NCBI GenBank assembly: GCA_017437755.1
Contig: JAFRXI010000040.1
Span: 1 to 50,828 of the forward strand
Length of the DNA: 50,828 bases
Direction: 5' to 3'
DNA from: Bacteroidales bacterium
GTDB lineage: Bacteria; Bacteroidota; Bacteroidia; Bacteroidales; UBA932
A model generated the notes under the pieces. That model was not told the DNA's origin, made no database searches, and saw only the letters and a program-made list of their open reading frames with translations. The position numbers and the translations under genes were made by a program. This document shows positions 31,941 through 48,647 of the stretch, in pieces (within the stretch, counting starts at the first letter, position 1; every line of letters begins with the position of its first letter).

Positions 31941-31942
31941 GA

Positions 31943-32991: not shown

Positions 32992-33537
32992 TCACCGGGA
33001 GAGGTCGGGCGGCAGGGCGGAGCGGATGTCGGAAAGGGCGAGTTCGAGGTGCTTTTCCACAGTGCGTACCGAAAGGTCCAGGCGGGCGGCGATGTCGGCA
33101 TTGCAAAGATGTCCTTTCCGGCTCATATTATAAATAAGGTTCCGGCGTGGGGGCAGTGTTGAAATGATCCTTTCCACGAGTTCACCAAGCTGGCTGGCCG
33201 ATACCGAGGCGTCGGCCCCGGGGGAGGCGTCGGGCATGTCCGCCGAGATGGCCTCACTGCGGCGAGAGAACGAATCCCGATGATGGCAGAAAACCTCGTT
33301 TCTGACAGCCACCAGGAGGTAATTCTTGAGGCTTTTGTTTTCGTCCAGCCTTTTCCTGCCTGTCCAGAGCTTCATGAATACATTCTGGACCACATCCTCG
33401 GCGGCGGCCTGGTCCTTCAGCAGAGAGGCGGCAAACCACAGGAAAGAGGGGGCATAAGAATTGAACAGGGCCTTGAAAGCGTCCCTGTCTCCAGCCTTGA
33501 GGCTCCGGGTGAGCATCCTTTCCTGTATTGCGTCCAT
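32992..33537 (-). CDS. ECF-type RNA polymerase sigma factor
   Basis: The protein is 181 aa from ATG 33537. Region 2 is present (AFKALFNSYAPSFLWFAASL, AAEDVVQNVFMKLW) and so is region 4 (LPPRRNLIYNMSRKGHLCNA, IAARLDLSVRTVEKHLELAL). It belongs to the FecI-like group that pairs with FecR anti-sigma factors and SusC proteins carrying an STN domain. It is transcribed away from fecR, unlike the usual sigma-fecR order. A TTG at 33549 and an ATG at 33516 are alternative starts. It is expected to activate the susCD locus when released by FecR. Confidence 0.9.
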   Translation of the reverse strand: MDAIQERMLTRSLKAGDRDAFKALFNSYAPSFLWFAASLLKDQAAAEDVVQNVFMKLWTGRKRLDENKSLKNYLLVAVRNEVFCHHRDSFSRRSEAISADMPDASPGADASVSASQLGELVERIISTLPPRRNLIYNMSRKGHLCNADIAARLDLSVRTVEKHLELALSDIRSALPPDLSR

Positions 33538-33546
33538 ATCTGCATC

Positions 33547-33554
33547 CAAATATA
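33547..33554 (-). promoter_or_regulatory. -7-like element for the ECF sigma gene
   Basis: The minus strand reads TATATTTG only 10 nt before ATG 33537. The transcript would have almost no leader, which fits the later ATG 33516 better if this promoter is used. Confidence 0.4.
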
Positions 33555-33623
33555 TGAATTATTTGGTTATCCGGTTACGTAATCGCAGACTTTGATGCAT
33601 ACTATTAATACAAGAAAGAAAGG

Positions 33624-34622
33624 ATGGAAACAATTAACTTGATCAGGAAATATCTTGAAGGGACGGCAGATGCGGCAGAGCGGGCGGAGGCGGAGGATTG
33701 GCTTTCAGGCCACTTGTCGGACCCGGTGTGCGACGGCATTTTTGAACAGGTGTTCCAGGATATGGAAAACCAGGGCAGAACCTTGCCAGCGGACAGGCTG
33801 GAGATAGCCGTGATGGAAAGGATATCAGCCCGGGAAGAGGCACAGAAGAGGATTCGCAGAAGCCGGATACTGGCATGGTCGTCCGCGGCTGCGGCCATGA
33901 TTGCGGTGGTTTCCCTGCTTTGGGCTTTCCGGCCTGCGGCAAAGGAGGTGGAATGGAAGATGGCCGTTGCAAGTGAGGGGGAAAACCTTGAACTGCAACT
34001 CCCTGACAATTCCCGGCTCTGGCTGAATTCGGGAACAAAAGTCTTGTATCCCAGTAGTTTCCATGGATCGGAGCGCACCGTTTATGTAGATGGCGAACTC
34101 TTTGCCGACATATCGGCCGACAAGCATCATCCCTTTGTCCTTCGCTCCAGCGGAATGAAGATAAAGGTGCTTGGGACGCGTTTCAACATGTGTTCGTACG
34201 CCTCTGACCCAACTGCCGAGGTGACTCTGCTGAGCGGTCGGGTGGAGGTTGAGGCTGAACTTCTGGGAGCCATTCCCGGTAAAGGGGAGGCCACCCGTTC
34301 CTGGATAATGTCGCCCGGCGATTTCTGCCGCCTGGAAAAGGACGGGGGCGCGGTGGAAACATATCGGGTGGACCCCGGCTCCCCGGAGTCCTGGACCAAC
34401 AGGAACAACCTGAGATTCATAAACGAGACGCTTAAAGGCATAGCCATAGACCTTGAGAGGCATTTCGGGACGAGGATTACCATAAACGACACGACACTGG
34501 CCCGGACGCGCTACTTTGCCTCCTTTGTCAACGACGAGCCGCTGGAAAGGATAATCACGGCCCTCAATCCGGCGATTCGCATAAAGAAAACAGAAAACGG
34601 ACTTATACTGTCTTTAAAATAA
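33624..34622 (+). CDS. fecR: FecR family anti-sigma factor
   Basis: The protein is 332 aa. A cytoplasmic N-terminal segment (about 1-80) is followed by one membrane helix (82-101, AWSSAAAAMIAVVSLLWAF), the periplasmic FecR domain (LELQLPDNSRLWLNSGTKVL, VYVDGELFADISAD) and a C-terminal DUF4974-like domain (LKGIAIDLERHFGTRITIND). It holds the ECF sigma factor inactive until the SusC/STN receptor signals. The susC gene begins 11 nt after its stop. The partner sigma gene is divergent, with 86 nt between the start codons. Confidence 0.93.
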   Translation: METINLIRKYLEGTADAAERAEAEDWLSGHLSDPVCDGIFEQVFQDMENQGRTLPADRLEIAVMERISAREEAQKRIRRSRILAWSSAAAAMIAVVSLLWAFRPAAKEVEWKMAVASEGENLELQLPDNSRLWLNSGTKVLYPSSFHGSERTVYVDGELFADISADKHHPFVLRSSGMKIKVLGTRFNMCSYASDPTAEVTLLSGRVEVEAELLGAIPGKGEATRSWIMSPGDFCRLEKDGGAVETYRVDPGSPESWTNRNNLRFINETLKGIAIDLERHFGTRITINDTTLARTRYFASFVNDEPLERIITALNPAIRIKKTENGLILSLK

Positions 34623-34633
34623 TCAAACCATAT

Positions 34634-37600
34634 ATGAGATACAAGATTCCATTGAAACGGGCCGGAGCCGCCCTGGTGTGGTTCCTGATATCCTGCGTCA
34701 CCCTTCCCCTGGCGGCGCAGAACATATCGTTGAGGGCCCGCGACATCACCGTCCTGGAAGTCATGGAACGCCTCCAGAAGGACTATGGCTATTCGTTCTC
34801 CATGGAGGCCGGCACCGTCGACGTCAACCGCAAGGTTTCCATTTCCGAGCGGAACGTGGATATCCGCACCGTCCTTGACCGGATATTCGGCGGTGAAGAT
34901 GTAGTTTATACCATTGACGGAAAGATAGTTTCCGTTACGGTGGCTCAAAAGCCCCAGGCCCGCGAGGAGCAACGCCAGGGGCCTGCTGAAAGGGTGATTA
35001 CCGGAACGGTATCGGACGCTTCCGGCCCGGTGGCGGGGGCTTCGGTGGTGATAAAGGGGACATCCACCGGAACTTATGCCGACCTTGGCGGACGTTTTTC
35101 CGTCAAGACGTCTAAGGCCAATCCGGTACTGGTTGTGAGTTTCATGGGCCTCAAGACAACCGAGGTTGAGGTCGGGAACCGGACCCTCCCGCTGGACATC
35201 ATTATGGAAAACGACGAGAACGTCCTCGACGAACTTGTGATAGTTGGATACGGAGCCCAGCGGAAGGGCCTTATTACCAATGCAATAAGCCAGTTCAAGC
35301 CGGGTGAGGACAACGCCCGCACCGCTCTCAGCCCGTCGGAGCTCCTTCAGGGCAGGGTGGCCGGCGTCAACGTTTCAACAACCAGCGGAAACCTCGGAAC
35401 GGCCGAGAAGATGAGCATCCGCGGCTCCAGTTCGCTGAGCGCCAGCAACGAGCCGCTGTACGTGGTGGACGGGATTCCCCTGAACAACGTGACAGGTTCC
35501 CTGTATTCCCTCGGCGAGGACCTTAGTTCGCTCTCCGTGCTGAACCTGACCGACATAGAGTCCATCGAGGTGCTCAAGGATGCGGCGTCGGCGGCAATCT
35601 ACGGGTCCAGGGCCACCAACGGCGTGGTGCTCATCACCACCAAGCAGGGACGGGAAGGCCGGAGCGAGGTCAAGGTCAATTACAGCATGGGAGTCAACCA
35701 GTTCCCCAACCGGAACCGCATCCGCTACGCCGATTCGGCCTCCTGGATCGAGGTTTACAACGAGGGAATCGACAATTACAATCGCCAGATGGGTTATACC
35801 CGGGAATCCCAGGGCTATATCCAGCATATCAGGAACCCGTTCGGAAACCTTCCGGATACGGACTGGCTGGGGGTGATTACCCGGCTCGGGCAGGCACACA
35901 ACGCGGATGTCTCCTTTACCGGAGGGACCTCCAAGACCAAGGTCTACCTCGGGGCCAACTTCGCTTACCAGGAGGGCGTCATAAAGACCAACGACATCCA
36001 GAAGATCAACCTCAGGGCAAACCTCTCCCACAAGGTCACAAAGTGGCTGGAAGTAGGCGGGAACATGAGCGGGAACTATCTGAAAAACAACAGGGTCCCG
36101 GGTGCGTCCATAGGATCCACCATAATCGGCCGGGCCGTTGAGCAGAGGCCGTTCGACCGTCCTTTCAAGCCTTCGGGCGCTTACTTCCTGGGCGGCACCG
36201 ACGAACTGTCCCGCCACAATCCGGTGCAGATCCTCACCGAGGAGACCTCCACGGTGACCAACTACCGTTTCCTGGCCGCCCTCTGGGCCCAGGCCTCAAT
36301 CGTGGACGGCCTCAAGATGAGGGTCTCGTTCAGTACCGACGATGCTTATACGTTCGATTACCTGTATTACAACGAGAACCATCCGTACAAGGAGGACAAC
36401 GGCCGCATAATCGAGAAGAACCGTTTCTTCATGAGCAATCTGGTGGAGGCATTCCTCACCTACGACAAGACCTGGGGAGACCTCTCGTTGGGGACCATGG
36501 CGGGCCATTCCTTCCAGAAGACCTCCACCCGTAACAACAGCATCGACGCCCAGAACTTCCCCTCGCCGTCGTTCGACACGGTTGGCGTTGCGGCCAACAT
36601 CGCCGGAGTCAGCGGCGGACTCAGCGAATATGCCCTGGAGTCTTTCTTTGGCAGGGTAAACCTCTCATGGAAAGACCGTTACATATTGAACACCACAATC
36701 CGGGCCGACGGGTCGTCGCGTTTTCCAAAAGGTGGCCGCTGGGGCTTTTTCCCTTCCGTGTCGCTTGGATGGAACGTCGCCAAGGAACCGTTCTGGCACT
36801 TTAAGGCGGCCGATCTCAAACTCCGTCTCAGCTACGGAAAAACCGGAAACCAGGACGGAATCAGCAACTACGGCTACAAGCCCCTGATCGGCGGCGGATT
36901 CAACTACCTGGGCGAAAGCGGAATCGCCGTCAGTTCAAAGGGAAACCCGGACCTGTCGTGGGAAATGGCCGACCAGTATGACTTCGGCTTCGATTTCACC
37001 CTGTTCAAGGGAAAGATCGAGATGATCTTCGACACATATCTGAAGAACACCCGTAACCTCCTCTACGACATGCCCATGCATTCCACCACCGGCCAGACAC
37101 AGAAGCTGGCCAATATCGGATCCATGCGCAACTACGGCGTTGAGTTCACGCTCAACACGCACGCGGACCTGGGACCGGTGCACTGGGCCTCGTCGTTCAA
37201 CATCACCCACAACAGGAACACCCTTACCTCGCTTCTTGGGAATGACATAGTATCAATCGGAAGCAACCACGCCCTCCAGGTGGGGAAGGAAGTGGGATCG
37301 TTCTACCTCCTCCGCTTTGACGGGATCTACCAGTACGACGGGGAGGTCCCCGACGCGGAATACGACATGGGAGTGAGGGCCGGCGACATAAAGTATTACG
37401 ACCTCAACGGCGACGGCTTAATCAACGATGACGACCGTATTATCACCGGCTCGCCGAATCCCGTCATCTCCGGTGGCTGGTCCAATACGTTCTCCTGGAA
37501 GGGGCTGAACCTCAATGTGTTCTTCACCTACAGCCAGGGGGCCGAGATTTATGCGACCTGGCTCATGGGCCCCACCAGGATGGGCAACTACCAGGCCCTT

Positions 37601-37960
37601 CTCCAAGAGTGGTGCGACAACCGCTGGACGGGCCCGGGAAGCACCGACAAGTATCCGAGGAGCATATATTCGTTCCACGGTAACAACAACCGGTCGTCCA
37701 CAAAGTATCTGGTGGACGGCTCGTTCATAAAGGTCAAGTCGGTGACCCTCTCTTACACCCTGCCCTCAAAGTGGACGGACGCCGTCAGGATGCGCTCCGT
37801 GAGGGTGTATGTCCAGGGCGAGAACCTCGCCCTGATAAGCAGGTATCCCGGCTGGGATCCGGAGATGTCCACCAGCCTGGACCCTCAGCTCTTCGGAGTG
37901 GCAAACTATGGTGTCCCCTCCCCGCGCGTGTACAAAGCGGGCGTTAACATAACCTTTTAA
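34634..37960 (+). CDS. susC: SusC/RagA family TonB-dependent outer membrane transporter with STN domain
   Basis: The protein is 1108 aa. A signal peptide ends near LAAQ (residue 29). The secretin/TonB STN signalling domain covers about 30-98 (NISLRARDITVLEVMERLQK). A carboxypeptidase-regulatory-like domain covers about 117-200 (ITGTVSDASGPVAGASVVIK), followed by the TonB-box region (ELVIVGYGAQRKG) and plug (SIEVLKDAASAAIYGSRATN). The rest is a 22-strand barrel ending VYKAGVNITF. It imports large glycan or peptide fragments across the outer membrane using TonB energy. The STN domain links it to FecR and the ECF factor. susD follows after 11 nt. Confidence 0.96.
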   Translation: MRYKIPLKRAGAALVWFLISCVTLPLAAQNISLRARDITVLEVMERLQKDYGYSFSMEAGTVDVNRKVSISERNVDIRTVLDRIFGGEDVVYTIDGKIVSVTVAQKPQAREEQRQGPAERVITGTVSDASGPVAGASVVIKGTSTGTYADLGGRFSVKTSKANPVLVVSFMGLKTTEVEVGNRTLPLDIIMENDENVLDELVIVGYGAQRKGLITNAISQFKPGEDNARTALSPSELLQGRVAGVNVSTTSGNLGTAEKMSIRGSSSLSASNEPLYVVDGIPLNNVTGSLYSLGEDLSSLSVLNLTDIESIEVLKDAASAAIYGSRATNGVVLITTKQGREGRSEVKVNYSMGVNQFPNRNRIRYADSASWIEVYNEGIDNYNRQMGYTRESQGYIQHIRNPFGNLPDTDWLGVITRLGQAHNADVSFTGGTSKTKVYLGANFAYQEGVIKTNDIQKINLRANLSHKVTKWLEVGGNMSGNYLKNNRVPGASIGSTIIGRAVEQRPFDRPFKPSGAYFLGGTDELSRHNPVQILTEETSTVTNYRFLAALWAQASIVDGLKMRVSFSTDDAYTFDYLYYNENHPYKEDNGRIIEKNRFFMSNLVEAFLTYDKTWGDLSLGTMAGHSFQKTSTRNNSIDAQNFPSPSFDTVGVAANIAGVSGGLSEYALESFFGRVNLSWKDRYILNTTIRADGSSRFPKGGRWGFFPSVSLGWNVAKEPFWHFKAADLKLRLSYGKTGNQDGISNYGYKPLIGGGFNYLGESGIAVSSKGNPDLSWEMADQYDFGFDFTLFKGKIEMIFDTYLKNTRNLLYDMPMHSTTGQTQKLANIGSMRNYGVEFTLNTHADLGPVHWASSFNITHNRNTLTSLLGNDIVSIGSNHALQVGKEVGSFYLLRFDGIYQYDGEVPDAEYDMGVRAGDIKYYDLNGDGLINDDDRIITGSPNPVISGGWSNTFSWKGLNLNVFFTYSQGAEIYATWLMGPTRMGNYQALLQEWCDNRWTGPGSTDKYPRSIYSFHGNNNRSSTKYLVDGSFIKVKSVTLSYTLPSKWTDAVRMRSVRVYVQGENLALISRYPGWDPEMSTSLDPQLFGVANYGVPSPRVYKAGVNITF

Positions 37961-37971
37961 TTCCGCAGGCC

Positions 37972-39246
37972 ATGAAACGAATAGTAATCACAATACTCAG
38001 CGCCCTGATGGCGGCAACTTCCTGCATGAGCTTGCTTGAACTCGACCCCCACAACGGGGTTTCGCCCTCGTCGGTGGGAACCGGAGACATAGAGGCCTTG
38101 CGCAACGGAATGTACAAATGCGTCCAGGAAAATCCCGGAACACGTTCCTACATAATGTTCGACCTCTGGGGCGGATGCCTGACCGCAAAGCAGAGTACCA
38201 ATTACATGGACCTGATAAACTCCTATGCGAGTTCCCTGAACAGCGAGATTGAATCCCAGTGGCAGGGATATTACAAGGCCCTGATGCAGGTGAACAATGT
38301 ATTCAGCATAGCCAAGGGGCTTCCGGAGGGCGACCTCAGGAACAAGGTCCTCGGTGAATGCCACTATTTCCGGGCATGGCTCCACCTGTGCCTGGTGACC
38401 CGGTGGGGAGATGTTCCCTTGATGCGGGAGAATACCGATGAAAAGGTTCCGAGGACGCCTGCCGGCGAGGTATGGTCGTTCATCTACGAAGAGCTCGGCC
38501 TTGCAGTGGACCTTCTCGGGACTCCGGAAAGCGTTTATTATCTCAGCCGTGACGCCGCGGTGGCGCTCAAGGCCAGGGTGGCCCTTTACATGGGCCTGAA
38601 GGACGAGGCCGCAACCCTTGCGGAAAGCCTCATTTCCGACGCCCGCTACGGTCTGGACAAGTTTGAGAACACCTTCAGGGGCGCCCTGGGAAAGGAGGTG
38701 ATCTTTGCCTTCGCCTGCCGTACGGCCGACAATTCCAAGATAGCCATAAGCACCCTGTTCTATTCCTACAACCATCCGAATTCCGGAAGCTACGTTTACG
38801 CCCCGTCGGCGGAGGTGATGGGAATGTATTCCGACGACGACCTCCGTAAGGAGATATCGGTCACCACCCTGGACAACCTGAATTTCATCAACAAGTATCC
38901 CAGCGGCCAGACCGGAACCGATCCGGTGGTGATTTCCCGCCTCGCCGAGATGTACCTCGTCAGCGCCGAGGCGCAGGGGGTGGAGAAAGGCGGGGCAAGG
39001 CTCAACGACCTTCGGAAGGCCAGGGGCCTGAGGCCGGTCTATCCCTCAACGGAAGCGGCTTTCATCGACGCCGTCCTTCAGGAAAGGCATCTGGAACTGC
39101 TTTGCGAGGGCCATCGCTGGTACGACCTCGTGAGGCTCGGAAAAGCCGAGTCGTTGCTCGGAATCCAGCCCCACATGACCCTCATGCCCATCCCTGCGAG
39201 CGAGATCCAGGCCAATGGCAACATCAAACAGAACAAAGACTATTAG
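37972..39246 (+). CDS. susD: SusD/RagB family nutrient-binding lipoprotein
   Basis: The protein is 424 aa, short for the family (usually 500-600). A lipobox-like MAATSC gives Cys18. N-terminal SusD helices (DIEALRNGMYKCVQENPGTR) and the C-terminal RagB/SusD block (LQERHLELLCEGHRWYDLVRL) are clear. SusD acts as a lid on SusC and binds the ligand at the cell surface. The ligand cannot be read from the sequence. The next gene starts 11 nt after the stop behind AGGAGGAGGG. Confidence 0.95.
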   Translation: MKRIVITILSALMAATSCMSLLELDPHNGVSPSSVGTGDIEALRNGMYKCVQENPGTRSYIMFDLWGGCLTAKQSTNYMDLINSYASSLNSEIESQWQGYYKALMQVNNVFSIAKGLPEGDLRNKVLGECHYFRAWLHLCLVTRWGDVPLMRENTDEKVPRTPAGEVWSFIYEELGLAVDLLGTPESVYYLSRDAAVALKARVALYMGLKDEAATLAESLISDARYGLDKFENTFRGALGKEVIFAFACRTADNSKIAISTLFYSYNHPNSGSYVYAPSAEVMGMYSDDDLRKEISVTTLDNLNFINKYPSGQTGTDPVVISRLAEMYLVSAEAQGVEKGGARLNDLRKARGLRPVYPSTEAAFIDAVLQERHLELLCEGHRWYDLVRLGKAESLLGIQPHMTLMPIPASEIQANGNIKQNKDY

Positions 39247-39257
39247 GAGGAGGGCAT

Positions 39258-40166
39258 ATGAAACGAATAAAATATCTTGTCATTTCAGCGGCTGTCCTTT
39301 GGGGCTGTTCCTCCGATTCCTTTGAGCAGCCCGGTTATTACAGCACCGACGCTTCCTCCCCCCTCGGGAAGGCCATAGTGGAGGCTTCGGCAGGCTACGT
39401 TGCCCATATACAGGAGGAGAGCGAGGTCAAACTCTCCCGCGGGGCCACCCTCCTTAAGATGGCTTATACCAACATGGACGGTCATGCAATGCGCCTTTTC
39501 CTGTTCAAGGCCGTGCTCGGCCCGGTTTCGGTAAGGATGACCCTTCCGGGAGACACTGATGCCACCGGATCGCTCCAGAAACTGTCCGAGCAGGCTTCGG
39601 CCATTGAAAACCACAGCGTCTGGACCGTTTACGGAGCTGTCAGCGGAGGAGCTTTCTCCTCTTCGGGCCAGCCCTCGGGCATCCTTTATCACAACGGAAA
39701 GTCGCTCGGGAAGGAGTCTGCCGAGGATTTGCCTTTCTTTGCAGTGCTTGCCGATGGCCAGGCCGTCTGCGGCGATGGACCCGGATTTGCAGAGATCAGC
39801 TACAAGGTTTCCGAGGCGGTGAGCGGCGGGCCCATGCTGCTCCAGGGAGGCTATGTGCTGGCCCAGGCCAACGTTACGTCCGACGCCCGCGCAGCTGTGG
39901 GTGTGGGTTCCGACGGCAACGAGGTTTACCTCATGGTGATTGACGGGGGCGATTTCTTCTACTCCAACGGCATCACCTGTTCCGACATGGCCCTTCTGAT
40001 GAAGGGCTGCGGCGCCACCGAGGCCATGGTCCTGGATAGTGGAAGTCCGGTTACCGCCATCTGGAGGAACGAGCGCCGGATTGAATTGTTCGAGCTCCTC
40101 AACAAGCCTTCCGACAGGGGAGTTGAGGCCGAAATATGTGACGGAATTGCAATTGTTCAACGATAA
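39258..40166 (+). CDS. NAGPA-like (phosphodiester glycosidase) lipoprotein with altered active-site motifs
   Basis: The protein is 302 aa. The start at 39258 is set by an AGGAGGAGGG site; the leader has a lipobox-like LWGC (Cys17). The whole length aligns by eye with the C-terminal half of the gene at 44502-45983, and both end in GIAIV plus a basic residue. NAGPA enzymes cleave GlcNAc-1-phosphodiesters. The two conserved motifs differ here: NGDFF is SGGAF (129-133) and LDGGGSS is LDSGSPV (from 259). It may bind ligand without cleaving it, or may have changed its specificity. Confidence 0.75.
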   Translation: MKRIKYLVISAAVLWGCSSDSFEQPGYYSTDASSPLGKAIVEASAGYVAHIQEESEVKLSRGATLLKMAYTNMDGHAMRLFLFKAVLGPVSVRMTLPGDTDATGSLQKLSEQASAIENHSVWTVYGAVSGGAFSSSGQPSGILYHNGKSLGKESAEDLPFFAVLADGQAVCGDGPGFAEISYKVSEAVSGGPMLLQGGYVLAQANVTSDARAAVGVGSDGNEVYLMVIDGGDFFYSNGITCSDMALLMKGCGATEAMVLDSGSPVTAIWRNERRIELFELLNKPSDRGVEAEICDGIAIVQR

Positions 40167-40172
40167 CGCCCT

Positions 40173-41936
40173 ATGAATAAAATACAAATATTGATTCTTT
40201 CCTTTATAGGGGGCTTGCTTTTGCAGGGGTGTCTGAATACCGTGGACAACACCGGATTCACCCCGGAGAATCCTTCCATCGCCTTTTCCGAATCGCCTGT
40301 GCAGGTATCCAATGCCGGGGGCGAAGTGGAGGTTGGGATTACGTCAAACCTGCCCTGGAGGGCCGTCAGTGACGCCCCCTGGGCCACCATAAGCGTTTCG
40401 CACGCCGCTTCCAGCGCCCGGATCACCGTCACGGTCCAGAAAAACCGTACCAGGGAAGCCAGGGAAGCCCATATCACCGCTTGGATAACCCGGGAAAGCA
40501 AGACCGTCCTTACTTTGAACCAGGAGGGCGCCGACGCTTCCGAATCGTTCGTCTATTATGTGAAAACCAGCGGTGACGGTCTTGCCTCCGGTCTAAGCTG
40601 GGCGGAGGCTACCACCCTTCCATCGGCCCTCGAGCTGGCCGCGGAGGGAGATGTAATATGCGTTGCGGCAGGCAGTTATTCCCCGGTTGCGCTCATTACG
40701 GGCGGAGAGCTTGAAGAGGAGAAGACCTTTGAAATTCCCGGCAATATAACCATCGAGGGCGGATATCCAGCCGATGCTGCCGACGGTGCCGTCTGTGATC
40801 CCGTGGCCAACGAAACCGTCCTCAGCGGAGGAGGGAAATGCTTCCATACCGTTGTGGTGTCCGCTCCCAAGTCGGCCTCGGCCAAGGTGGTCCTCAAAGG
40901 CCTCACGATTACCGGCGGGGAAGGCTATTCCGCCACCGAGACCTACCGTCGCAGCGTGGGTGGTGTACTTGTGGATGCCGCCTATGGGGGCGGCCTGGTG
41001 ATAGCCGGATCCAATTTCGAGGTTGTGGACTGCCGGATAGCGGAAAATACTTCCACCCATGCCGCAGGCTGTCTCGTGATGCCCCGGTCCGAGGGCTCGT
41101 TTACCCGCTGCACCATCTTCAGGAATACCGCCAACGTCAACGGAGGAGGCCTGTGGAACCAGGGGGGAAGCATTGTGATGAGGGATTGCGTAATCTCGTC
41201 CAATATCTCCGGCCAGCAGGCCGCCGGCTTCTACTCCATAGATTCAGGTGGCGCGCCCAGCGTGAGCAGGGTCTACAACTGCACCTTCCAGGGCAATGAC
41301 AACACCCTTACCAACACCAAGCGCTCCGGAGGCGCCACATATATCCGCGCCGGAAGCGACGCCGTGTTCGTCAACTGCACCTTCACCCAGAACAAGGCCG
41401 GATACGGCGGGGTGATCTCCGGACACGGCACCACCGCCCTGCCTTCCAAGGCGGCATTCATAAGCTGCACCATGACCGGAAACCTTGCCAACGACGGTGG
41501 CGGAGCCCTGTTTGCCTATAACGCAAACGCAACCATAACTGCTTATAACTGTATTATTTCCGGAAATACCGGTCCTTCCGGCAGCGAGAATGCCGGCGTG
41601 CTTGACGGCGTTGGTGCGGAGCATGTAATGGTTCTTTCGTCAATACTCGGAAGCAGCCTGGTCGACAAGGGTGGCCTGCCGGTTCCCGGATGGTCTTTCA
41701 ACGCTGAAACCATGCTCGGGGCCTACGGGACAGTTCCCGGAGGAATTACCCCCTGCTTCCCCCTTGTTGAGTCTGCCGACAACCCGGCCGTCGCCGGAGG
41801 ACTGGACGCCGCCGGCCTCGCCGACGTTGCCGGAAGCTTTGTCCCCCCTGTGGACGGAGCCCTTCTTTCATCCGACCAGAACGGTTCCGCAAGAACCGGT
41901 AAATCAATTGGTTCCGTAACAAGTTCGAAACAATAA
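40173..41936 (+). CDS. BACON-domain and parallel beta-helix lipoprotein
   Basis: The protein is 587 aa. A lipobox-like LLLQGC gives Cys20. Residues about 35-120 form a BACON domain (GEVEVGITSNLPWRAVSDAP), a module often linked to carbohydrate or mucin binding. From about 130 on, right-handed beta-helix repeats with short strands and conserved Gly/Asn/Cys turns are visible (CTIFRNTANVNGGGLWNQGG; CTFTQNKAGYGGVISGHG), as in polysaccharide lyases and adhesins. No catalytic site can be named. It is paralogous in its helix part to the next gene. It starts 6 nt after the NAGPA-like gene and is probably surface exposed. Confidence 0.8.
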   Translation: MNKIQILILSFIGGLLLQGCLNTVDNTGFTPENPSIAFSESPVQVSNAGGEVEVGITSNLPWRAVSDAPWATISVSHAASSARITVTVQKNRTREAREAHITAWITRESKTVLTLNQEGADASESFVYYVKTSGDGLASGLSWAEATTLPSALELAAEGDVICVAAGSYSPVALITGGELEEEKTFEIPGNITIEGGYPADAADGAVCDPVANETVLSGGGKCFHTVVVSAPKSASAKVVLKGLTITGGEGYSATETYRRSVGGVLVDAAYGGGLVIAGSNFEVVDCRIAENTSTHAAGCLVMPRSEGSFTRCTIFRNTANVNGGGLWNQGGSIVMRDCVISSNISGQQAAGFYSIDSGGAPSVSRVYNCTFQGNDNTLTNTKRSGGATYIRAGSDAVFVNCTFTQNKAGYGGVISGHGTTALPSKAAFISCTMTGNLANDGGGALFAYNANATITAYNCIISGNTGPSGSENAGVLDGVGAEHVMVLSSILGSSLVDKGGLPVPGWSFNAETMLGAYGTVPGGITPCFPLVESADNPAVAGGLDAAGLADVAGSFVPPVDGALLSSDQNGSARTGKSIGSVTSSKQ

Positions 41937-41949
41937 AACCACAAATGAT

Positions 41950-44505
41950 ATGAAAACATCAAAACTGATCATCCTTTCCATGGCGGCTTTGGGCATGCTG
42001 GCCGTTTCATGCAAGGAAAACGGCCCGGAGCAACCGGAGAACAAGACGCTGTCGATTCTAGCCACAGTTGACGGGACCCTCGTTAAAGAGTGGAAGGCCT
42101 CCGACGAAATCAAGGTGGTGGTAGCCGATGAAATGTATACCTTCACCACTTCCGGCAGCGGCAGGAGCGCAACCTTCACGGAGCCGGAAGGCCTTCTGAC
42201 GGCCGCCAAGGTCGGAACCAATCCGGTATCGGCGTACTATGGGTGCTCCTCCATGTTCGGAACGTTCAGGATTTCCTCCGAGCCCCAATGGGAGGGCGGT
42301 GCCGTCAAGGGGACCATCCCCATGTACGCCTATACCATGAACGCCCCGGAAAACAACACTCTTGCCCTTTCCTTCAAGAGCCTGGCGTCAATCCTTTCCT
42401 TTGATTTCCAGGCATTTGACATGAAGGTTGACAAGATTTCAATCACTCCGGCCGACAACGCCACCATCTCATTCGGCGCGCTCGCTGGAGGATTTACGGC
42501 CGATGCGGCCCAGGGAAACGTCTCGGTGACCAATGCCGTGAACTCCATCGTGGTGGAATTCCCGTCCAAACTGGACCTTTCCAAGGGCGCCAAGGTGGAT
42601 ATTCCGGTGGGCTGGTTCACCGTGGCCGGCGGCCTCAAGGTGGTGCTGACCTACGATTCGGTCAAAGAATACGAGAGCATTATCTGGGCTGACGGATCCT
42701 CCGTCTCATCGTTTGACAACGCCTCCGGCCTCCGTAGCGGTGCCATAAAGACGGTCTCGTTCGAGTTTGACGCCAACGCCTTCCCGCGTGACTATTATGT
42801 GAAGGCCGACGCCCCCGCAAGCGGCAAAGGCCTCTCCTGGGCCGCCCCCGCAACCCTTTCCTATGCCCTCGAGGCGGCCAAACCGGAGTCCAGGATCCAT
42901 ATGGCGGCCGGAACCTACAAGGTTGACGGCAATATCACCATGGGCGAAACATCCCTCAAGGGCCTCCTGGTTGACAGGAACATCGCCCTGATAGGCGGAT
43001 ATCCTGCAAACGCTTCGGCCGGGGCCACGGCCAATCCGTCGGCCAATCCTACCATAATAGACGGCGGGGAAACCGCCGCCCATGTGCTCGTGGTTGCCGC
43101 TCCCAAGGTGGAAGGCATGAAGGTCACCCTTTCCGGCCTTACCATAAAGGGAGGAAAGAGCACTGCCGGTGATGCCGTGTTGAATTTTGGGGAATTATCA
43201 CTGTATCAGGATTATGCGGCCGGCCTTGCCCTGATGGGCTCCGTGGTGGACATGGAGAACTGCGTGGTTACGGGGAACGACGGCGTAAATGCTGCCGGAC
43301 TGTACTGCACGGGGAGCTCCGTGAACATTAAGGGTGGTGAGATCTCCGGCAACACGTCTTCTGGAAACGGCGCCGGTGCCTGGTTCGCGGCCGGAACCGA
43401 CCTCGTAATGGACGGGACGGTGATAAAGGAAAATGAGGCGGGTGCCATCGTGGGCGGCCTCTACCTCTATACCGCGGCCGAAAAAACCCTTAAGGCGGTG
43501 ATCAGGAACGTTACGTTCCTTTCCAACAAGGCCACTACCAATGCGGGCGGATTGTATGTCCGCGACGACAGCGGAAGCTTCGGCCTGGATGCATCGTTCG
43601 AGAACTGCCTCGTAGAGAAGAACTCCGGCAGCATGGGTGCGGCAATCCTGATCCTCAATGCCAGGCCTTCTTTCAAGGGATGCTCCATCGTGGACAACAT
43701 TGCCGCAGGAAACGGAATGGTTTATGTCCAGACCAGCGGCACCGGCAGCGACGAGGTCCTGTTCGACGGCTGCCTCTTCAAGGGGAATACCTCCTCCGGT
43801 TCGGCCGTAGGATCAGCCATTTATGCCTATAACAACAGTTCCAGCGGAACTATCCGGCTGGACGTGCTGAATTCCGCCTTCGTGGACAATACGTCCGGAG
43901 GCCGGGCGGCCGTCTACCTCAGGAACAACCAGGCCGGAACGGTTACCGGAAACTTCGTCAACTGCACCATGACCGGGAACAGCGCCGGATCATGGGGCGG
44001 CGCCATCGACCTTTACGGGGCCGCTGCCAAGCCGGTTGTGCTCAATCTTTACAGCTGCACCGTGGTGGACAACGTGAGCACAAAGGATACCGCTCCCGGA
44101 GGCATTGTCCTGGAGACGGCGGGGACCAGCGTAAACACCTGGAATTCAATCATTGCCGGAAATACCACCGTTGGTGTCGAGAACAATGTCAATCCTTACA
44201 AGTCCAACGCGGTGGCGCACAGGGCCACCATCGTGGGCGGAGACTATTTCAAAGCCGACAGGACCGCAGGATCGGTGTCACCGGCCTTCAATACCGCCTC
44301 CATGCTCGCCGCTCCCGACTCCTATGGCGTCAGGAAGCTGGTTGGCAACTCTTCAAACAATCCCGCCTTCGGAAACGGGCTCACTGCCACGGCCCTGAAG
44401 GCGCTCGCCTCCGGAAGCATCTCCGCCGAGGTTCTCGGTGCCGATCAGAGGGGGCTTTCCCGTAACGATACGGATAAGATAATGGGCGCAAGCGTAGCGA
44501 AATGA
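41950..44505 (+). CDS. fimbrillin-like N-terminus fused to a parallel beta-helix, lipoprotein
   Basis: The protein is 851 aa. A lipobox-like LAVSC gives Cys21. Residues about 30-260 resemble fimbrillin-type beta domains (WKASDEIKVVVADEMYTFTT). From about 280 a beta-helix begins with YYVKADAPASGKGLSWAAPA, which parallels YYVKTSGDGLASGLSWAEAT in the preceding gene. Repeats such as CVVTGNDGVNAAGLYCTGSS and CTMTGNSAGSWGGAIDLYG continue to about 780. It is probably a surface glycan-binding protein or an unknown lyase-like enzyme. It overlaps the next gene by 4 nt (ATGA), so their translation is coupled. Confidence 0.8.
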   Translation: MKTSKLIILSMAALGMLAVSCKENGPEQPENKTLSILATVDGTLVKEWKASDEIKVVVADEMYTFTTSGSGRSATFTEPEGLLTAAKVGTNPVSAYYGCSSMFGTFRISSEPQWEGGAVKGTIPMYAYTMNAPENNTLALSFKSLASILSFDFQAFDMKVDKISITPADNATISFGALAGGFTADAAQGNVSVTNAVNSIVVEFPSKLDLSKGAKVDIPVGWFTVAGGLKVVLTYDSVKEYESIIWADGSSVSSFDNASGLRSGAIKTVSFEFDANAFPRDYYVKADAPASGKGLSWAAPATLSYALEAAKPESRIHMAAGTYKVDGNITMGETSLKGLLVDRNIALIGGYPANASAGATANPSANPTIIDGGETAAHVLVVAAPKVEGMKVTLSGLTIKGGKSTAGDAVLNFGELSLYQDYAAGLALMGSVVDMENCVVTGNDGVNAAGLYCTGSSVNIKGGEISGNTSSGNGAGAWFAAGTDLVMDGTVIKENEAGAIVGGLYLYTAAEKTLKAVIRNVTFLSNKATTNAGGLYVRDDSGSFGLDASFENCLVEKNSGSMGAAILILNARPSFKGCSIVDNIAAGNGMVYVQTSGTGSDEVLFDGCLFKGNTSSGSAVGSAIYAYNNSSSGTIRLDVLNSAFVDNTSGGRAAVYLRNNQAGTVTGNFVNCTMTGNSAGSWGGAIDLYGAAAKPVVLNLYSCTVVDNVSTKDTAPGGIVLETAGTSVNTWNSIIAGNTTVGVENNVNPYKSNAVAHRATIVGGDYFKADRTAGSVSPAFNTASMLAAPDSYGVRKLVGNSSNNPAFGNGLTATALKALASGSISAEVLGADQRGLSRNDTDKIMGASVAK

Positions 44506-45983
44506 CAAAAAGGATAATTGCATTGGTCCTTCTGGTCTGGGCAGGGGCGGCGATGGCCGTCTCCTGCTCGGACAAGGGACCGGAAGAGAAACATTCCATA
44601 ATCTTTGCCGAGAATCCGGTGATGGCCGGAGCTTCGGCAGGGGATTTCGAGGTTGCAATAGTGGCCGATGCTGAGTGGAAAGCATCCTCTGCGGATTCAT
44701 GGATAACCCTTAAGACTCCCACGGGAGGGGCTTCCTGCTCGTTCTCGGTGGCGGCAAATCCGGAGACATCGTCCCGGGACGGAAAGATAAGGTTTTCCAT
44801 TTCAGGTTATTCCAAAGACCTGACCGTCCGTCAGGTAGGGAATACCGGAAGACTTACCCTGGGGCAGTCGTCGGTGGATATCGACACCTACGGAACCCCG
44901 GTCGAGATAATGGTGACTTCGGCCGAGAACTGGACGGTGTCGTCCGTGGGGGCTTCATGGCTGAAGGCCGTGCCAAAGAACGGAGCGACCCTGACCGTTT
45001 CGGCCGGGATGAACTATTCAGGTAAGGCCAGGACTGCAAGCGTTGTGCTTTCAACGGTGTCGGACCAGGCATCGCTGTCGGTTACCCAGGCTGCGGACAA
45101 TTCGGTTTTCTTTGGGGCATCCACGGAGGAAGGACGGGTTTTCGCTTACAAGACCGGCCTTGTGTCTACGGTTACTTCCGACAGGACCTATACCGTTACC
45201 GACGGCGTAGACGTGCTGGAGATCAGCTATGTGGGCAAGGTGAACGGGGCTCTCGCCCCTACCGCCGTCTTCCTTTACACGATTGACCTGGACAAGGTTT
45301 CGCTTGCCGTAACGTGCGCAAACGACGACGATTCTTCCATAAAGCCCGTCGACACCCAGTTGACGCTTGTGCAGACAATGCGCCAGCAGCTTGCCGCCAT
45401 GCAGTCAAAGCGCGGAATCCAGGTGTGGGGCGGTGTTAACGGCGACTTCTTTTACGGTAGTTCCGGCCGGAACAACCTGGCACAGGGAATCGTGGTCCGC
45501 CGTGGCGTGGTTCTGAAGGATACCTTTGACGGAGGGACGGTATGCACGGTTTTCGCCCTGATGAAGGACGGGACGGGCGCAATCCTCACCCAGGCGGAGT
45601 ATGCGGCCCGCAAAAGCAGCATCGCCGAAGCGCTCGGCGGACGGCAAAGGCTGCTTCAGAACGGCGATATCGTATCGGAAGACACTACCCTGGAGCCGCG
45701 TACGGCGGTAGGCGTGAGTGCGGACAAGAAAACCGTGTACCTCCTGATTGTGGACGGAAGGCGGTCAAGCTGGTCGACCGGAGCATCTTATCCCATGATG
45801 TCCAGGATGTTCCTTGCCATGGGCGCCAGCAATGCCATCAATCTCGACGGCGGCGGTTCGTCCACTTTCGTAGTCCATGAGGGAACGACGGCCGCCCTTT
45901 CGGAATTCGTGACAAAGAACAGGCCGGTCGACAATACCGGAGACCGCGCCGTGATAAACGGCATAGCTATTGTGAAGAAGTAG
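44502..45983 (+). CDS. BACON-domain phosphodiester glycosidase (NAGPA family) lipoprotein
   Basis: The protein is 493 aa. A lipobox-like MAVSC gives Cys22. Two BACON-like domains cover about 30-110 and 115-200 (AEWKASSADSWITLKTPTGG; ENWTVSSVGASWLKAVPKNG). The C-terminal NAGPA/DUF2233 domain has VNGDFFYGSSG (Asn313, Asp315) and INLDGGGSSTFV (Asp449, Gly450-452, Ser453), the family's hallmark motifs. Known relatives hydrolyse alpha-GlcNAc-1-phosphodiesters, exposing a phosphate. It is placed directly before a histidine phosphatase gene. The substrate is inferred only. Confidence 0.87.
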   Translation: MTKRIIALVLLVWAGAAMAVSCSDKGPEEKHSIIFAENPVMAGASAGDFEVAIVADAEWKASSADSWITLKTPTGGASCSFSVAANPETSSRDGKIRFSISGYSKDLTVRQVGNTGRLTLGQSSVDIDTYGTPVEIMVTSAENWTVSSVGASWLKAVPKNGATLTVSAGMNYSGKARTASVVLSTVSDQASLSVTQAADNSVFFGASTEEGRVFAYKTGLVSTVTSDRTYTVTDGVDVLEISYVGKVNGALAPTAVFLYTIDLDKVSLAVTCANDDDSSIKPVDTQLTLVQTMRQQLAAMQSKRGIQVWGGVNGDFFYGSSGRNNLAQGIVVRRGVVLKDTFDGGTVCTVFALMKDGTGAILTQAEYAARKSSIAEALGGRQRLLQNGDIVSEDTTLEPRTAVGVSADKKTVYLLIVDGRRSSWSTGASYPMMSRMFLAMGASNAINLDGGGSSTFVVHEGTTAALSEFVTKNRPVDNTGDRAVINGIAIVKK

Positions 45984-45987
45984 ATTC

Positions 45988-47319
45988 ATGAGAAAGTTTT
46001 TGATTCTTGGCCTGCTTGCCGTTTTCCCCGCGTTGGCGGCTTCGGGGCAGGGGAGGCCGTCGGCCCGCGAGGAAATCGGACAGGACATCAGGAAGGCCGC
46101 GGGAGTGTTCTACCTGTACGATTTCAGCCGGGATGCCACCATAAAGTCGCCTAGGGGATACAAGCCTTTTTACGTGAGCCATTACGGCAGGCACGGGGCC
46201 AGGCGGCATTCCACCGAGGCGGACCTTGTGGCGGTTGACTCCGTTTTTGAGCAGGCCCACCTGGCAGGGAACCTCACGGAGAAGGGAGAGCGGTTCCGCG
46301 CCGCTTTCAAGGAGCTTTATGCCCAGTCCCGATACCACGCCGGGGACCTTACCGAAAAGGGTCGGGAGCAGCATAAGGAGATAGCACGCAGGATGTTCCA
46401 TAATTTCCCGCAGGTGTTCAAGGGCCGTCCTGTGGTAGATGCAAGGGCCACCCTGTCAACAAGGTGCATAATAAGCATGGCGTCGTTCTGCAACGAGCTC
46501 ATTGCGCTGAACCCTTCGGTCCGGGTGCATGAGGAGAGCAGCTATTCCGACATGGGCAGGCTCTCCGTCTTCCATCCGATGCAGCCCCAGTTCCTGGATT
46601 TCGATGATGGCCTTTCAAAAAAAGGACCCTGGTACAAGGACTACAGCAAGTTCTTCAACTCGCTGGACCACAAGTCTTTCCTGAAAAAGTACTTCAAGGA
46701 TGTTTCCGGGATTTCCCGCGAGGCCAATCTGACAAGGCAGATGTATTACATGTTTTGCAGCGGCCCTTGCCTGGACTCCCCGGTGTATTTCTGGGACGTG
46801 ATTGACCAGGACGACGCCTTCAACTACTGGGAGGCCTTCAATTTCCGGTTCTATTCGGCCATGGCGTCGTGGCCTGCCAACAAGGGTCGGAAGCCCGCGC
46901 TCGCCTGGATACTGCTCGACGATATCGTGTCCAGGGCCGACGAGGACATCGCCACCGGAGGCACCCAGGCCCGTCTCCGCTTTGGGCACGACATTGTCCT
47001 GATGTCCTTTATGGACCTTATGGGGGCGGAAGGATGGGACCGTGTGGTGACCGACCCGCATAAGGCAAAGGAGGTTTTCCGCACCTACGACGTTCCCATG
47101 GCGTCCAACATCCAGTTTGCCTTCTACCGCGGCCGCAAGGGCGATGTCATTGTCCGCGTGCTATATAACGGCAACGACCTGCCGCTCCCGGTGGAAAAGG
47201 CTGATGTTTCGGGCGGCAAGGCTTTGGGGTTATTCTACGAGTGGCCCGTGCTGCGCGCTTATTTCATCGACCGCATTGCCTCGGCAAAGGCCCTTCTGGC
47301 TTCCACCGGCAGCCGCTGA
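45988..47319 (+). CDS. histidine acid phosphatase family protein (MINPP/phytase-like)
   Basis: The protein is 443 aa. A signal peptide ends near AASGQ (residue 18). The catalytic RHGAR motif is at residues 68-72 (SHYGRHGARRHS), with His69 as the nucleophile, and the C-terminal proton-donor motif HD is at 334-335 (RFGHDIVLM). The size and Cys-poor sequence suit bacterial clade-2 histidine phosphatases, whose members act on inositol phosphates and sugar phosphates. It follows the NAGPA gene by 4 nt, so it is in the same operon. It converges with a paralogue 2 bp away. Confidence 0.9.
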   Translation: MRKFLILGLLAVFPALAASGQGRPSAREEIGQDIRKAAGVFYLYDFSRDATIKSPRGYKPFYVSHYGRHGARRHSTEADLVAVDSVFEQAHLAGNLTEKGERFRAAFKELYAQSRYHAGDLTEKGREQHKEIARRMFHNFPQVFKGRPVVDARATLSTRCIISMASFCNELIALNPSVRVHEESSYSDMGRLSVFHPMQPQFLDFDDGLSKKGPWYKDYSKFFNSLDHKSFLKKYFKDVSGISREANLTRQMYYMFCSGPCLDSPVYFWDVIDQDDAFNYWEAFNFRFYSAMASWPANKGRKPALAWILLDDIVSRADEDIATGGTQARLRFGHDIVLMSFMDLMGAEGWDRVVTDPHKAKEVFRTYDVPMASNIQFAFYRGRKGDVIVRVLYNGNDLPLPVEKADVSGGKALGLFYEWPVLRAYFIDRIASAKALLASTGSR

Positions 47320-47321
47320 AG

Positions 47322-48647
47322 CTATTTCAGCAAATCCTCAATCATTGACTTTGCGGCCGAGGTGACCGTGCGGTAATGCGACGTGAAGTCGCTCCAGCGG
47401 TAGTATGGGGCGTTTTCTCCCGGGAGGGGCAGGGTGATGTCGCGTTCGTTCAGCATCATCCTCACCAGGGTGGGGGCGCCGCGCCTGGCGTAGAAAACCA
47501 GCTGCAGGTTGGCCGCCATGGGGACGTTGGTGAAATCGTAGAAATACTTTATGTCGGAAGGATGCGCCGCCGGGGTGGACCAGCCGTCCACGCCCATCAG
47601 GCACAGTATCATGGCGATCGGGGTGTCGTGTCCGAAGCGGAGCCTTGCCCCGAATTTCCCGGAGGCGAGGTCCTCGTCGGCCTTGTCCATGATGTCGTCC
47701 AGGAGCAGCGACGCCAGCAGGAAGGCCGGGTTGGTGCCGTTTTCTCCGGGACCCCATTTCTGGTAATAGAAGTAGTTGCGCCATTCCCACAGCCCGTAAA
47801 GTTCCTCGGGCGAGAACATGCCTTCGAACGACACGGGGACGTCGGTGCAGGCGGTGCTGATCATCAGGAAATACAGCTCCAGTTCCAGGTTCGTCTTGCC
47901 GAAGTTCCGCTCTACCCAGTCCAGGTCGGTGAAGTAGCGGGGAAGGAATTCATCGGCCCGTATTGTCCTGGCTTTGAGGTCTTTGACTTCTTTCATCCAG
48001 CCTTTGCCATAAGGTTTCTTCCCACCCCTGACCGATTCGCTGAAGGGGTGGTTGCTATGGTGGGGGTTCATGATGGGCATGAACGACTCGCTGGTCTCCT
48101 TGTCAATCCTGACGTGGCTGTCCTGTTCCTCTATGGCGTCGCAGAAGGCCACCATGGACATTATCGAGCGCTGGATGGTGGAGGCCCTGGCGTCCAGGTG
48201 AGGATGCTTCCTGAACACCTGCCGGTAGTTCCGGTACATCCTGCCTCCGATTCCGTAATGCTGGTCCCAGCCCAGGGGGGTCAGGTCCCCGGCCCTTCCG
48301 TCAAAGTACTTGTAGGCCCCCAGGTACTTCTGTGCCAGGGCCCTGCCATCCGGCGTAAGGACTCCCGCCACGATAGCCTTCTCAAAGAAAGCCTTTAGGT
48401 CGTCGTATCCTTCCTGCTTGTAGTTGTAACGGGCGCCATGCCTGCCGTAATGGCTGATATACACGGGTTTATACCCTTTTGGCGGGACGGCGCACGGCTC
48501 CGTGGGCGCCTTGTATGGGGAGTACTCCAGATAGGCGTAAACGGGATCCTGCATGATGCGGTCGTAGGCGGCGGGTGCCTTTTCCTGGGCGGAGACGGCC
48601 ATGCTGAGAGTCAGCAGTACGGCGGTAAATACCAAGGCTCTTTTCAT
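47322..48647 (-). CDS. histidine acid phosphatase family protein, paralogue
   Basis: The protein is 441 aa from ATG 48647 (MKRALVFTAVLLTLSMAVSA, a clear signal peptide). RHGAR lies at about 69-73 (SHYGRHGARYNY), and the HD motif is in ARLRFGHDTPIAM. It is a paralogue of the gene at 45988-47319, sharing blocks such as PPKGYKPVYISHYGRHGAR and GHD, though clearly diverged. It has its own promoter-like site (48671-48678) on the minus strand and faces the operon of its relative. Longer in-frame starts at 48662 and 48689 exist; the signal peptide favours 48647. Confidence 0.9.
   Translation of the reverse strand: MKRALVFTAVLLTLSMAVSAQEKAPAAYDRIMQDPVYAYLEYSPYKAPTEPCAVPPKGYKPVYISHYGRHGARYNYKQEGYDDLKAFFEKAIVAGVLTPDGRALAQKYLGAYKYFDGRAGDLTPLGWDQHYGIGGRMYRNYRQVFRKHPHLDARASTIQRSIMSMVAFCDAIEEQDSHVRIDKETSESFMPIMNPHHSNHPFSESVRGGKKPYGKGWMKEVKDLKARTIRADEFLPRYFTDLDWVERNFGKTNLELELYFLMISTACTDVPVSFEGMFSPEELYGLWEWRNYFYYQKWGPGENGTNPAFLLASLLLDDIMDKADEDLASGKFGARLRFGHDTPIAMILCLMGVDGWSTPAAHPSDIKYFYDFTNVPMAANLQLVFYARRGAPTLVRMMLNERDITLPLPGENAPYYRWSDFTSHYRTVTSAAKSMIEDLLK

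What the first reader, a model, noticed from the sequence alone, without database searches (positions are those of the whole stretch)
32992..48647. SusCD locus combining NAGPA-type phosphodiester glycosidases, beta-helix lipoproteins and histidine phosphatases
After ECF sigma, FecR, SusC (with STN) and SusD come a NAGPA-like protein, two parallel beta-helix lipoproteins, a BACON-NAGPA protein and a histidine acid phosphatase, all closely spaced on one strand. A second histidine phosphatase converges with them. No classical glycoside hydrolase or sulfatase is present. The order suggests that a surface phosphodiester is opened by NAGPA and the exposed phosphate is then removed by the phosphatase, with SusCD importing the product. 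Candidate ligands are phosphomannan-like glycans, inositol-phosphate glycans or teichoic-type polymers. This set is not one I recognise as a described utilization locus.
Basis: partly seen in the sequence, partly recalled or inferred. Interest (0 to 1): 0.75.

Follow-up and report, generated by a model that had tools for sequence, protein, structure and literature searches.

The report
Phosphate-linked sugar uptake gene cluster
A gut bacterium carries an uptake gene cluster that appears built to cut sugars joined through phosphate and then remove the phosphate; related species keep its core, and in some of them the two enzymes are fused into one protein, but what it feeds on is not yet known.

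Summary
The genes are there, with corrections: the ECF sigma gene is divergent, NAGPA1 starts at 39258, and NAGPA1 has lost motifs that nearly all its relatives keep. FecR-SusC-SusD-NAGPA1-BH1-BH2-NAGPA2-HP1 is a tight eight-gene run; HP2 converges on it. The core SusC-SusD-NAGPA1-BH1-BH2-NAGPA2 is kept in all 13 closest loci as far as their contigs reach, and NAGPA1 is degenerate in all 13, so it is probably a binding protein derived from the enzyme. The phosphatase is optional: 4 of 11 loci that reach that far. Yet histidine phosphatase and NAGPA are fused in one frame in 21 distinct proteins of relatives, in both domain orders and in several tree branches, and 7 of 29 SusD-NAGPA loci carry an Exo_endo_phos protein. 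HP1 and HP2 have the HD motif, not the MINPP HAE motif, so phytate is unlikely. The substrate is unknown. Phosphate scavenging, as in Flavobacterium PUS loci, is a live rival, and 17 of 29 loci show neither phosphoesterase (several are cut short). My searches found no description of this NAGPA class of SusCD locus. New variant of a known kind.

The parts
32992..33537 (-). ECF sigma factor (TIGR02985), divergent from the operon
33624..34622 (+). FecR anti-sigma factor
34634..37960 (+). SusC TonB-dependent transporter with STN signalling domain
   Evidence: TIGR04056, 855 bits
37972..39246 (+). SusD lipoprotein
39258..40166 (+). NAGPA1: lipoprotein with NAGPA fold but degenerate motifs (PRT to ARA, DGR to DGG, LDGGGS to LDSGSP); probable surface binding protein
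   Evidence: model closest to 3OHG
40173..41936 (+). BH1: BACON plus parallel beta-helix lipoprotein
41950..44505 (+). BH2: beta-helix-type lipoprotein, 33% identical to BH1
44502..45983 (+). NAGPA2: BACON domains plus NAGPA with the motifs intact; lipoprotein
45988..47319 (+). HP1: histidine phosphatase branch 2, RHGAR and HD motifs, signal peptide I
47322..48647 (-). HP2: second histidine phosphatase, convergent, not in the operon

Best explanation
The locus is a SusCD uptake locus for a glycan whose sugars are joined through phosphodiesters. Shown: a tight gene run; conserved core order; NAGPA2 with intact family motifs; phosphatases with intact RHGxR and HD motifs; repeated natural fusion of the two enzyme types in relatives. 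Inferred: NAGPA1, BH1, BH2 and SusD hold the ligand at the surface; NAGPA2, a surface lipoprotein, hydrolyses glycosyl-1-phosphodiester bonds and leaves an oligosaccharide with a terminal phosphate monoester; SusCD imports it; HP1 (and perhaps HP2) removes the phosphate in the periplasm; the divergent ECF sigma with FecR and the STN domain of SusC switches the operon on when ligand passes.
For: Core order in the orthologous loci (SusD 55% identity or more) that reach each gene, window included: NAGPA1 14 of 14, BH1 14 of 14 (two partial), BH2 12 of 12, NAGPA2 11 of 11. Fusions: 23 fused ORFs, 21 distinct, 17 phosphatase-NAGPA and 4 NAGPA-phosphatase; fused against unfused needs 6 changes (gains or losses) on the phosphatase tree, at least 4 by starred branches. 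One fusion sits at the phosphatase position of an orthologous locus (L292). In 24 relatives 9 of 51 NAGPA hits, fusions included, have a PF00328 hit within 6 kb against 0.88 expected by uniform placement. Other phosphoesterase families beside NAGPA: Exo_endo_phos, Metallophos and a partial alkaline phosphatase in Bacteroides finegoldii. NAGPA2 matches 3OHG and animal NAGPA (uncovering) enzymes (species).
Against: No activity or substrate is shown. Seven of 11 orthologous loci lack a histidine phosphatase there, and of 29 loci with NAGPA after SusD, 17 show neither a histidine phosphatase nor an Exo_endo_phos protein, several of them cut short. Two of 15 ortholog-bearing genomes (G346, G378) had no match to a fusion protein at E 1e-15. 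No fusion was seen in the window's own genome. HP1 and HP2 sit among unfused phosphatases, in a 9-row set with support 89/84. Bacterial NAGPA proteins may do other chemistry. Most relatives are fragmentary genomes. Exo_endo_phos and Metallophos families also include nucleases and phosphodiesterases (recalled). Uniform placement ignores gathering of both families in SusCD loci.
Confidence: 0.6

Rival explanations
1. A phosphate-scavenging locus in the style of the Flavobacterium phosphate utilisation systems (PUS): the cell wants the phosphate, and SusCD imports organophosphorus compounds.
For: In F. johnsoniae, PUSI and PUSII join SusCD-like complexes with phosphodiesterases or a phosphomonoesterase rather than CAZymes; ECF or FecR genes occur in PUSI-PUSIII; beta-helix-like lipoproteins (homology to polygalacturonase) occur in PUSIII and PUSIV (PMC8115612, passages and section 16). 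The window has the same kinds of parts.
Against: 'pf09992' and 'glycosidase' have no occurrence in that paper's main text. NAGPA by its known chemistry frees the sugar and not the phosphate, and it is the more constant enzyme here, while the phosphatase is the optional one. Phosphate regulation could not be tested.
Confidence: 0.25
2. The locus uses NAGPA-fold proteins for a different bond (for example nucleotide sugars or a non-phosphate glycoside), and the phosphatase link is secondary.
For: The animal enzyme also hydrolyses UDP-GlcNAc (passage in PMC12024695); I found no bacterial NAGPA substrate in the papers seen; seven of 11 orthologous loci lack the phosphatase.
Against: Repeated fusion of phosphatase and NAGPA in both orders and several phosphoesterase families beside NAGPA.
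Confidence: 0.1
3. A phytate or inositol-phosphate uptake locus, with HP1 and HP2 as MINPP phytases.
For: The nearest solved structures include BtMinpp chains.
Against: HP1 reads HDI and HP2 HDT where MINPP enzymes have the HAE proton-donor motif; NAGPA would have no role.
Confidence: 0.05

Closest known systems
Flavobacterium phosphate utilisation systems (PUSI-PUSIV; PMC8115612, passages and section 16 read)
   Same: SusCD-like transporters, phosphoesterases, ECF or FecR genes and beta-helix-like lipoproteins, spread over the four clusters
   Different: Phosphodiesterases or PhoA in place of NAGPA ('pf09992' not in its main text); defined by induction under phosphate starvation, not testable here
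CAZyme-less susC/D loci with phosphodiesterases (PMC6499787, passages read)
   Same: SusCD without known CAZymes plus phosphate-ester enzymes; 576 of 14,713 such loci
   Different: Counted by PF00149 and PF01663 and read as possible nucleic-acid uptake; NAGPA and histidine phosphatases are not in the passages I saw
Animal mannose 6-phosphate uncovering enzyme (NAGPA)
   Same: Same fold and family; cleaves GlcNAc-1-P-mannose and leaves a phosphate monoester (passages in PMC12024695)
   Different: Golgi processing of a protein tag; no phosphatase partner and no transporter (recalled)
BACOVA_00430 / 3OHG of Bacteroides ovatus
   Same: Nearest solved structure to both NAGPA proteins; a B. finegoldii protein with the BACOVA_00430 N-terminal domain lies in an ECF-FecR-SusC-SusD-NAGPA-BACON-NAGPA locus
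   Different: That locus has two GH3 genes and a Metallophos protein, and no histidine phosphatase by profile

Membership tests
Polysaccharide utilization locus (SusCD type) | Adjacent SusC and SusD genes | tested here: met
Polysaccharide utilization locus (SusCD type) | Linked enzymes acting on the imported glycan | tested here: inconclusive
   NAGPA2 and HP1 linked with intact motifs; activity not shown
Polysaccharide utilization locus (SusCD type) | CAZyme (GH, PL, CE) in the locus | tested here: not met
   no such family among ten proteins; so I file it as a SusCD uptake locus, not as a CAZyme PUL
NAGPA phosphodiester glycosidase (PF09992), NAGPA2 | Family match and the RT, DGR, LDGGG motifs | tested here: met
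   motifs taken from my alignments, their catalytic role not checked in print
NAGPA phosphodiester glycosidase (PF09992), NAGPA1 | The RT, DGR, LDGGG motifs | tested here: not met
   ARA, DGG, LDSG; DGR and LDGGG also lost in 13 of 13 orthologues; family match and fold are met
Histidine phosphatase branch 2 | RHGxR and HD motifs | tested here: met
   HP1 and HP2 both RHGAR and GHD
MINPP | HAE proton-donor motif | tested here: not met
   HDI and HDT; definition from passages of PMC3969271 and PMC7762957. The BtMinpp chains aligned read HDN and HDE; I take them for altered variants, not checked
Flavobacterium-type PUS | Induction by phosphate starvation | not testable with these tools
   no expression data

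The most novel reading that the evidence does not exclude
A distinct class of SusCD loci, phosphoglycan utilization loci, in which NAGPA plus an interchangeable phosphomonoesterase takes the place of, or stands beside, glycoside hydrolases; single two-domain enzymes (phosphatase-NAGPA and NAGPA-phosphatase) carry out both steps in the periplasm, and in the window's clade a dead NAGPA has become a surface glycan-binding protein beside SusD.
Probability: 0.45. Interest if true: 0.75.

Novelty: new variant of a known kind. Interest (0 to 1): 0.6.

Why it matters
If true, gut Bacteroidales have a dedicated way to eat glycans held together by phosphate, a class that CAZyme-based searches for utilization loci overlook. 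It would give bacterial NAGPA proteins a physiological role, explain some SusCD loci without CAZymes, and supply natural two-step enzymes for opening and dephosphorylating phosphoglycans. The conserved dead NAGPA beside SusD would be a clear case of an enzyme turned into a binding protein.

Tried and rejected
Phytate or MINPP reading: disfavoured by the HD motif. Two active NAGPA enzymes: rejected for NAGPA1. Beta-helix proteins as enzymes: not settled. 30 of 70 invariant BH1 positions and 35 of 78 in BH2 are Asn or Gly, with 5 and 6 charged ones (12 and 11 sequences); no solved relative by sequence; the BH1 model (mean pLDDT 52) has only weak matches (best E 0.028) to beta-helix proteins, lyases and hydrolases among them. 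Promoter and terminator scan: no more hits than shuffles. Yeast mannan hint: own genome has one GH92 and one GH76 match, not decisive. SusD-NAGPA linkage outside the genus: 0 of 11 SusD relatives at 29-33% identity have a NAGPA in the stretches fetched (11 to 20 kb; L341 is cut right after SusD), so the linkage looks specific to this SusD clade. First gene calls picked antisense ORFs and were redone with codon scores; the NAGPA seed was out of frame and was corrected.

Papers: passages only of PMC12024695, PMC12419801, PMC11488536, PMC3969271, PMC7762957 and PMC6499787; passages and section 16 of PMC8115612; all others only as search listings. No paper describing this locus was found in the listings (20 of 41 shown; 6 of 6; 15 of 155; 15 of 47; 20 of 52; 10 of 5,721, swamped by other words beginning with 'susc'; 9 of 9). 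Das et al. 2013 on this domain is not held, so which NAGPA residues are catalytic is not checked.
Full report
What is there. The window is one whole contig (G000:C4) of an 85% complete, 2.88 Mb genome. From FecR (33624) to HP1 (47319) eight genes run on the plus strand with gaps of 13 bases or fewer. The ECF sigma gene is divergent, and HP2 converges on HP1 with 2 bases between. SusD, NAGPA1, BH1, BH2 and NAGPA2 begin with lipoprotein-like signal peptides; HP1 and HP2 begin with signal peptide I (read from the sequence, no predictor run). The genome has 8 NAGPA matches and 6 PF00328 matches in all.

NAGPA1 is not like NAGPA2. NAGPA2 carries the residues that are nearly invariant in the alignments. 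In a first set of 55 NAGPA rows (three of them the same gene fetched twice) from window, own genome and relatives, the window's NAGPA1 was the only one that lost PRT, DGR and LDGGG together. In the 13 orthologous loci with SusD at 55% identity or more, the NAGPA next to SusD is degenerate in all 13, while NAGPA2 is intact in all 10 that reach it. A model of NAGPA1 (mean pLDDT 70) still matches 3OHG best (TM 0.74) and then the animal NAGPA enzymes. It is best read as a conserved non-catalytic NAGPA fold in the place where other SusCD loci often encode surface glycan-binding proteins (the last point recalled).

The locus is conserved. A search with the window SusD matched 54 of 400 same-genus genomes at E 1e-40 or better, 68 places. 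I examined 33 of the 68, window included: 29 of 33 have NAGPA directly after SusD. All 13 closest keep SusC-SusD-NAGPA1-BH1 (BH1 partial in two), and BH2 and NAGPA2 follow wherever the contig reaches (12 of 12 and 11 of 11, window included). As a contrast, 0 of 11 out-of-genus SusD relatives at 29-33% identity have a NAGPA in the stretch fetched, one of them cut right after SusD.

The phosphatase is a frequent but not fixed member. Of the 11 loci that reach past NAGPA2, four carry a histidine phosphatase: the window, L291, L293 (continued in L304) and L292, where it is fused to a NAGPA domain. Of the other seven, six carry a further NAGPA gene nearby (in L287 on the other strand) and L288 carries neither. 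A more distant locus, L295, reads SusC-SusD-NAGPA-BH1-phosphatase. In the sister loci that I scanned, at about 40% SusD identity, NAGPA is followed by TIG or NHL propeller lipoproteins and Exo_endo_phos proteins, and one has a GH20. Over the 29 loci with NAGPA after SusD, 5 carry a histidine phosphatase (window, L291, L292, L293, L295), 7 an Exo_endo_phos protein (L300, L308, L309, L310, L317, L319 by profile; L311 by Pfam), and 17 neither, several of these cut short.

Fusions. In 24 same-genus genomes PF00328 was found in 21 of 24 and PF09992 in 19 of 24. Across 101 pooled loci, chosen for NAGPA, phosphatase or SusD hits, 23 ORFs carry both domains, 21 of them distinct: 17 phosphatase-NAGPA and 4 NAGPA-phosphatase. 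A tree of 49 phosphatase domains needs 6 changes between fused and unfused, at least 4 by well supported branches; changes may be gains or losses. HP1 and HP2 lie among unfused rows, and I saw no fusion in the window's own genome. Of those 9, four name a ruminant stomach in the record title (L167, L169, L172, L215); the other five name no source there. L165 and L166 show a further form, SusC-SusD-lipoprotein-NAGPA-(phosphatase-NAGPA); L168 has the same order with only the phosphatase part read; in L167 the fusion lies just before the ECF-FecR-SusC-SusD set. Proximity in the 24 genomes exceeds uniform expectation: 6 of 51 NAGPA hits within 2 kb of a PF00328 hit against 0.29, 9 of 51 within 6 kb against 0.88, fusions included. 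That control does not allow for both families gathering in SusCD loci; the fusions do not suffer from this.

Bacteroides. Two B. finegoldii records carry related loci. L325 reads ECF-FecR-SusC-SusD-NAGPA-BACON-NAGPA-DUF6528-GH3-GH3-Metallophos. L326 reads FecR, then a SusD start (54% identical to the window SusD over 199 residues) in frame with NAGPA, then BACON, NAGPA and a partial alkaline phosphatase; it looks like a shortened copy. All four NAGPA domains there keep the motifs, except that L326's second has PRS for PRT.

Phosphatase type. HP1 and HP2 have RHGAR and an HD motif. MINPP enzymes have HAE instead (passages of PMC3969271 and PMC7762957). Phytate is therefore not the likely substrate.

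Mechanism. The best reading is a two-step attack on glycosyl-1-phosphodiesters: NAGPA2 frees a sugar and leaves a phosphate monoester, and a periplasmic phosphatase removes it. NAGPA2 at the surface and HP1 in the periplasm implies import of a phosphorylated fragment through SusCD; in the fusions both steps would be periplasmic. Order, conservation, motif state and fusions are shown; chemistry, localisation, ligand and regulation are inferred.

Comparison with what is known. The nearest described systems are the PUS loci of Flavobacterium and the CAZyme-less susC/D loci with phosphodiesterases counted in PMC6499787. Neither mentions NAGPA in the parts I read. Whether the cell seeks sugar or phosphate is open.

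Verdict. The link between NAGPA, SusCD and phosphoesterases reaches well beyond this window, but the phosphatase is not a constant partner.

Noticed in passing
window 48739-50828, plus strand: Divergent from HP2, an ORF that looks like a membrane-bound pyrophosphatase (recognised from recall, not scanned) and runs off the contig end.
   Followed up: no
window 30552-32788, minus strand: A pair resembling glutamate synthase small subunit and ferredoxin-NADP reductase (from recall, not scanned) directly left of the locus.
   Followed up: no
L326 11404-15837: Bacteroides finegoldii locus in which a SusD start runs in frame into NAGPA, SusC is absent and the alkaline phosphatase is partial; possibly a shortened copy.
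   Followed up: partly
L325 and L326 (NZ_OY725915.1, NZ_OY725947.1): Records listed as plasmids carry housekeeping genes such as pdxH, fmt and rpe; they may be chromosome pieces.
   Followed up: no
L285 14632-18393: A 1253-residue protein with BH2-like, BACON and NAGPA regions in one frame.
   Followed up: partly
L043 9637-12178 (own genome, C55) and L248 8362-10395 (own genome, C33): Two tandem histidine phosphatases, and a SusCD locus with a histidine phosphatase; no NAGPA found in either stretch.
   Followed up: partly
phage collection record MT839764.1: A fecal contig filed as phage encodes a NAGPA 44% identical to NAGPA2 over 38% of it.
   Followed up: no
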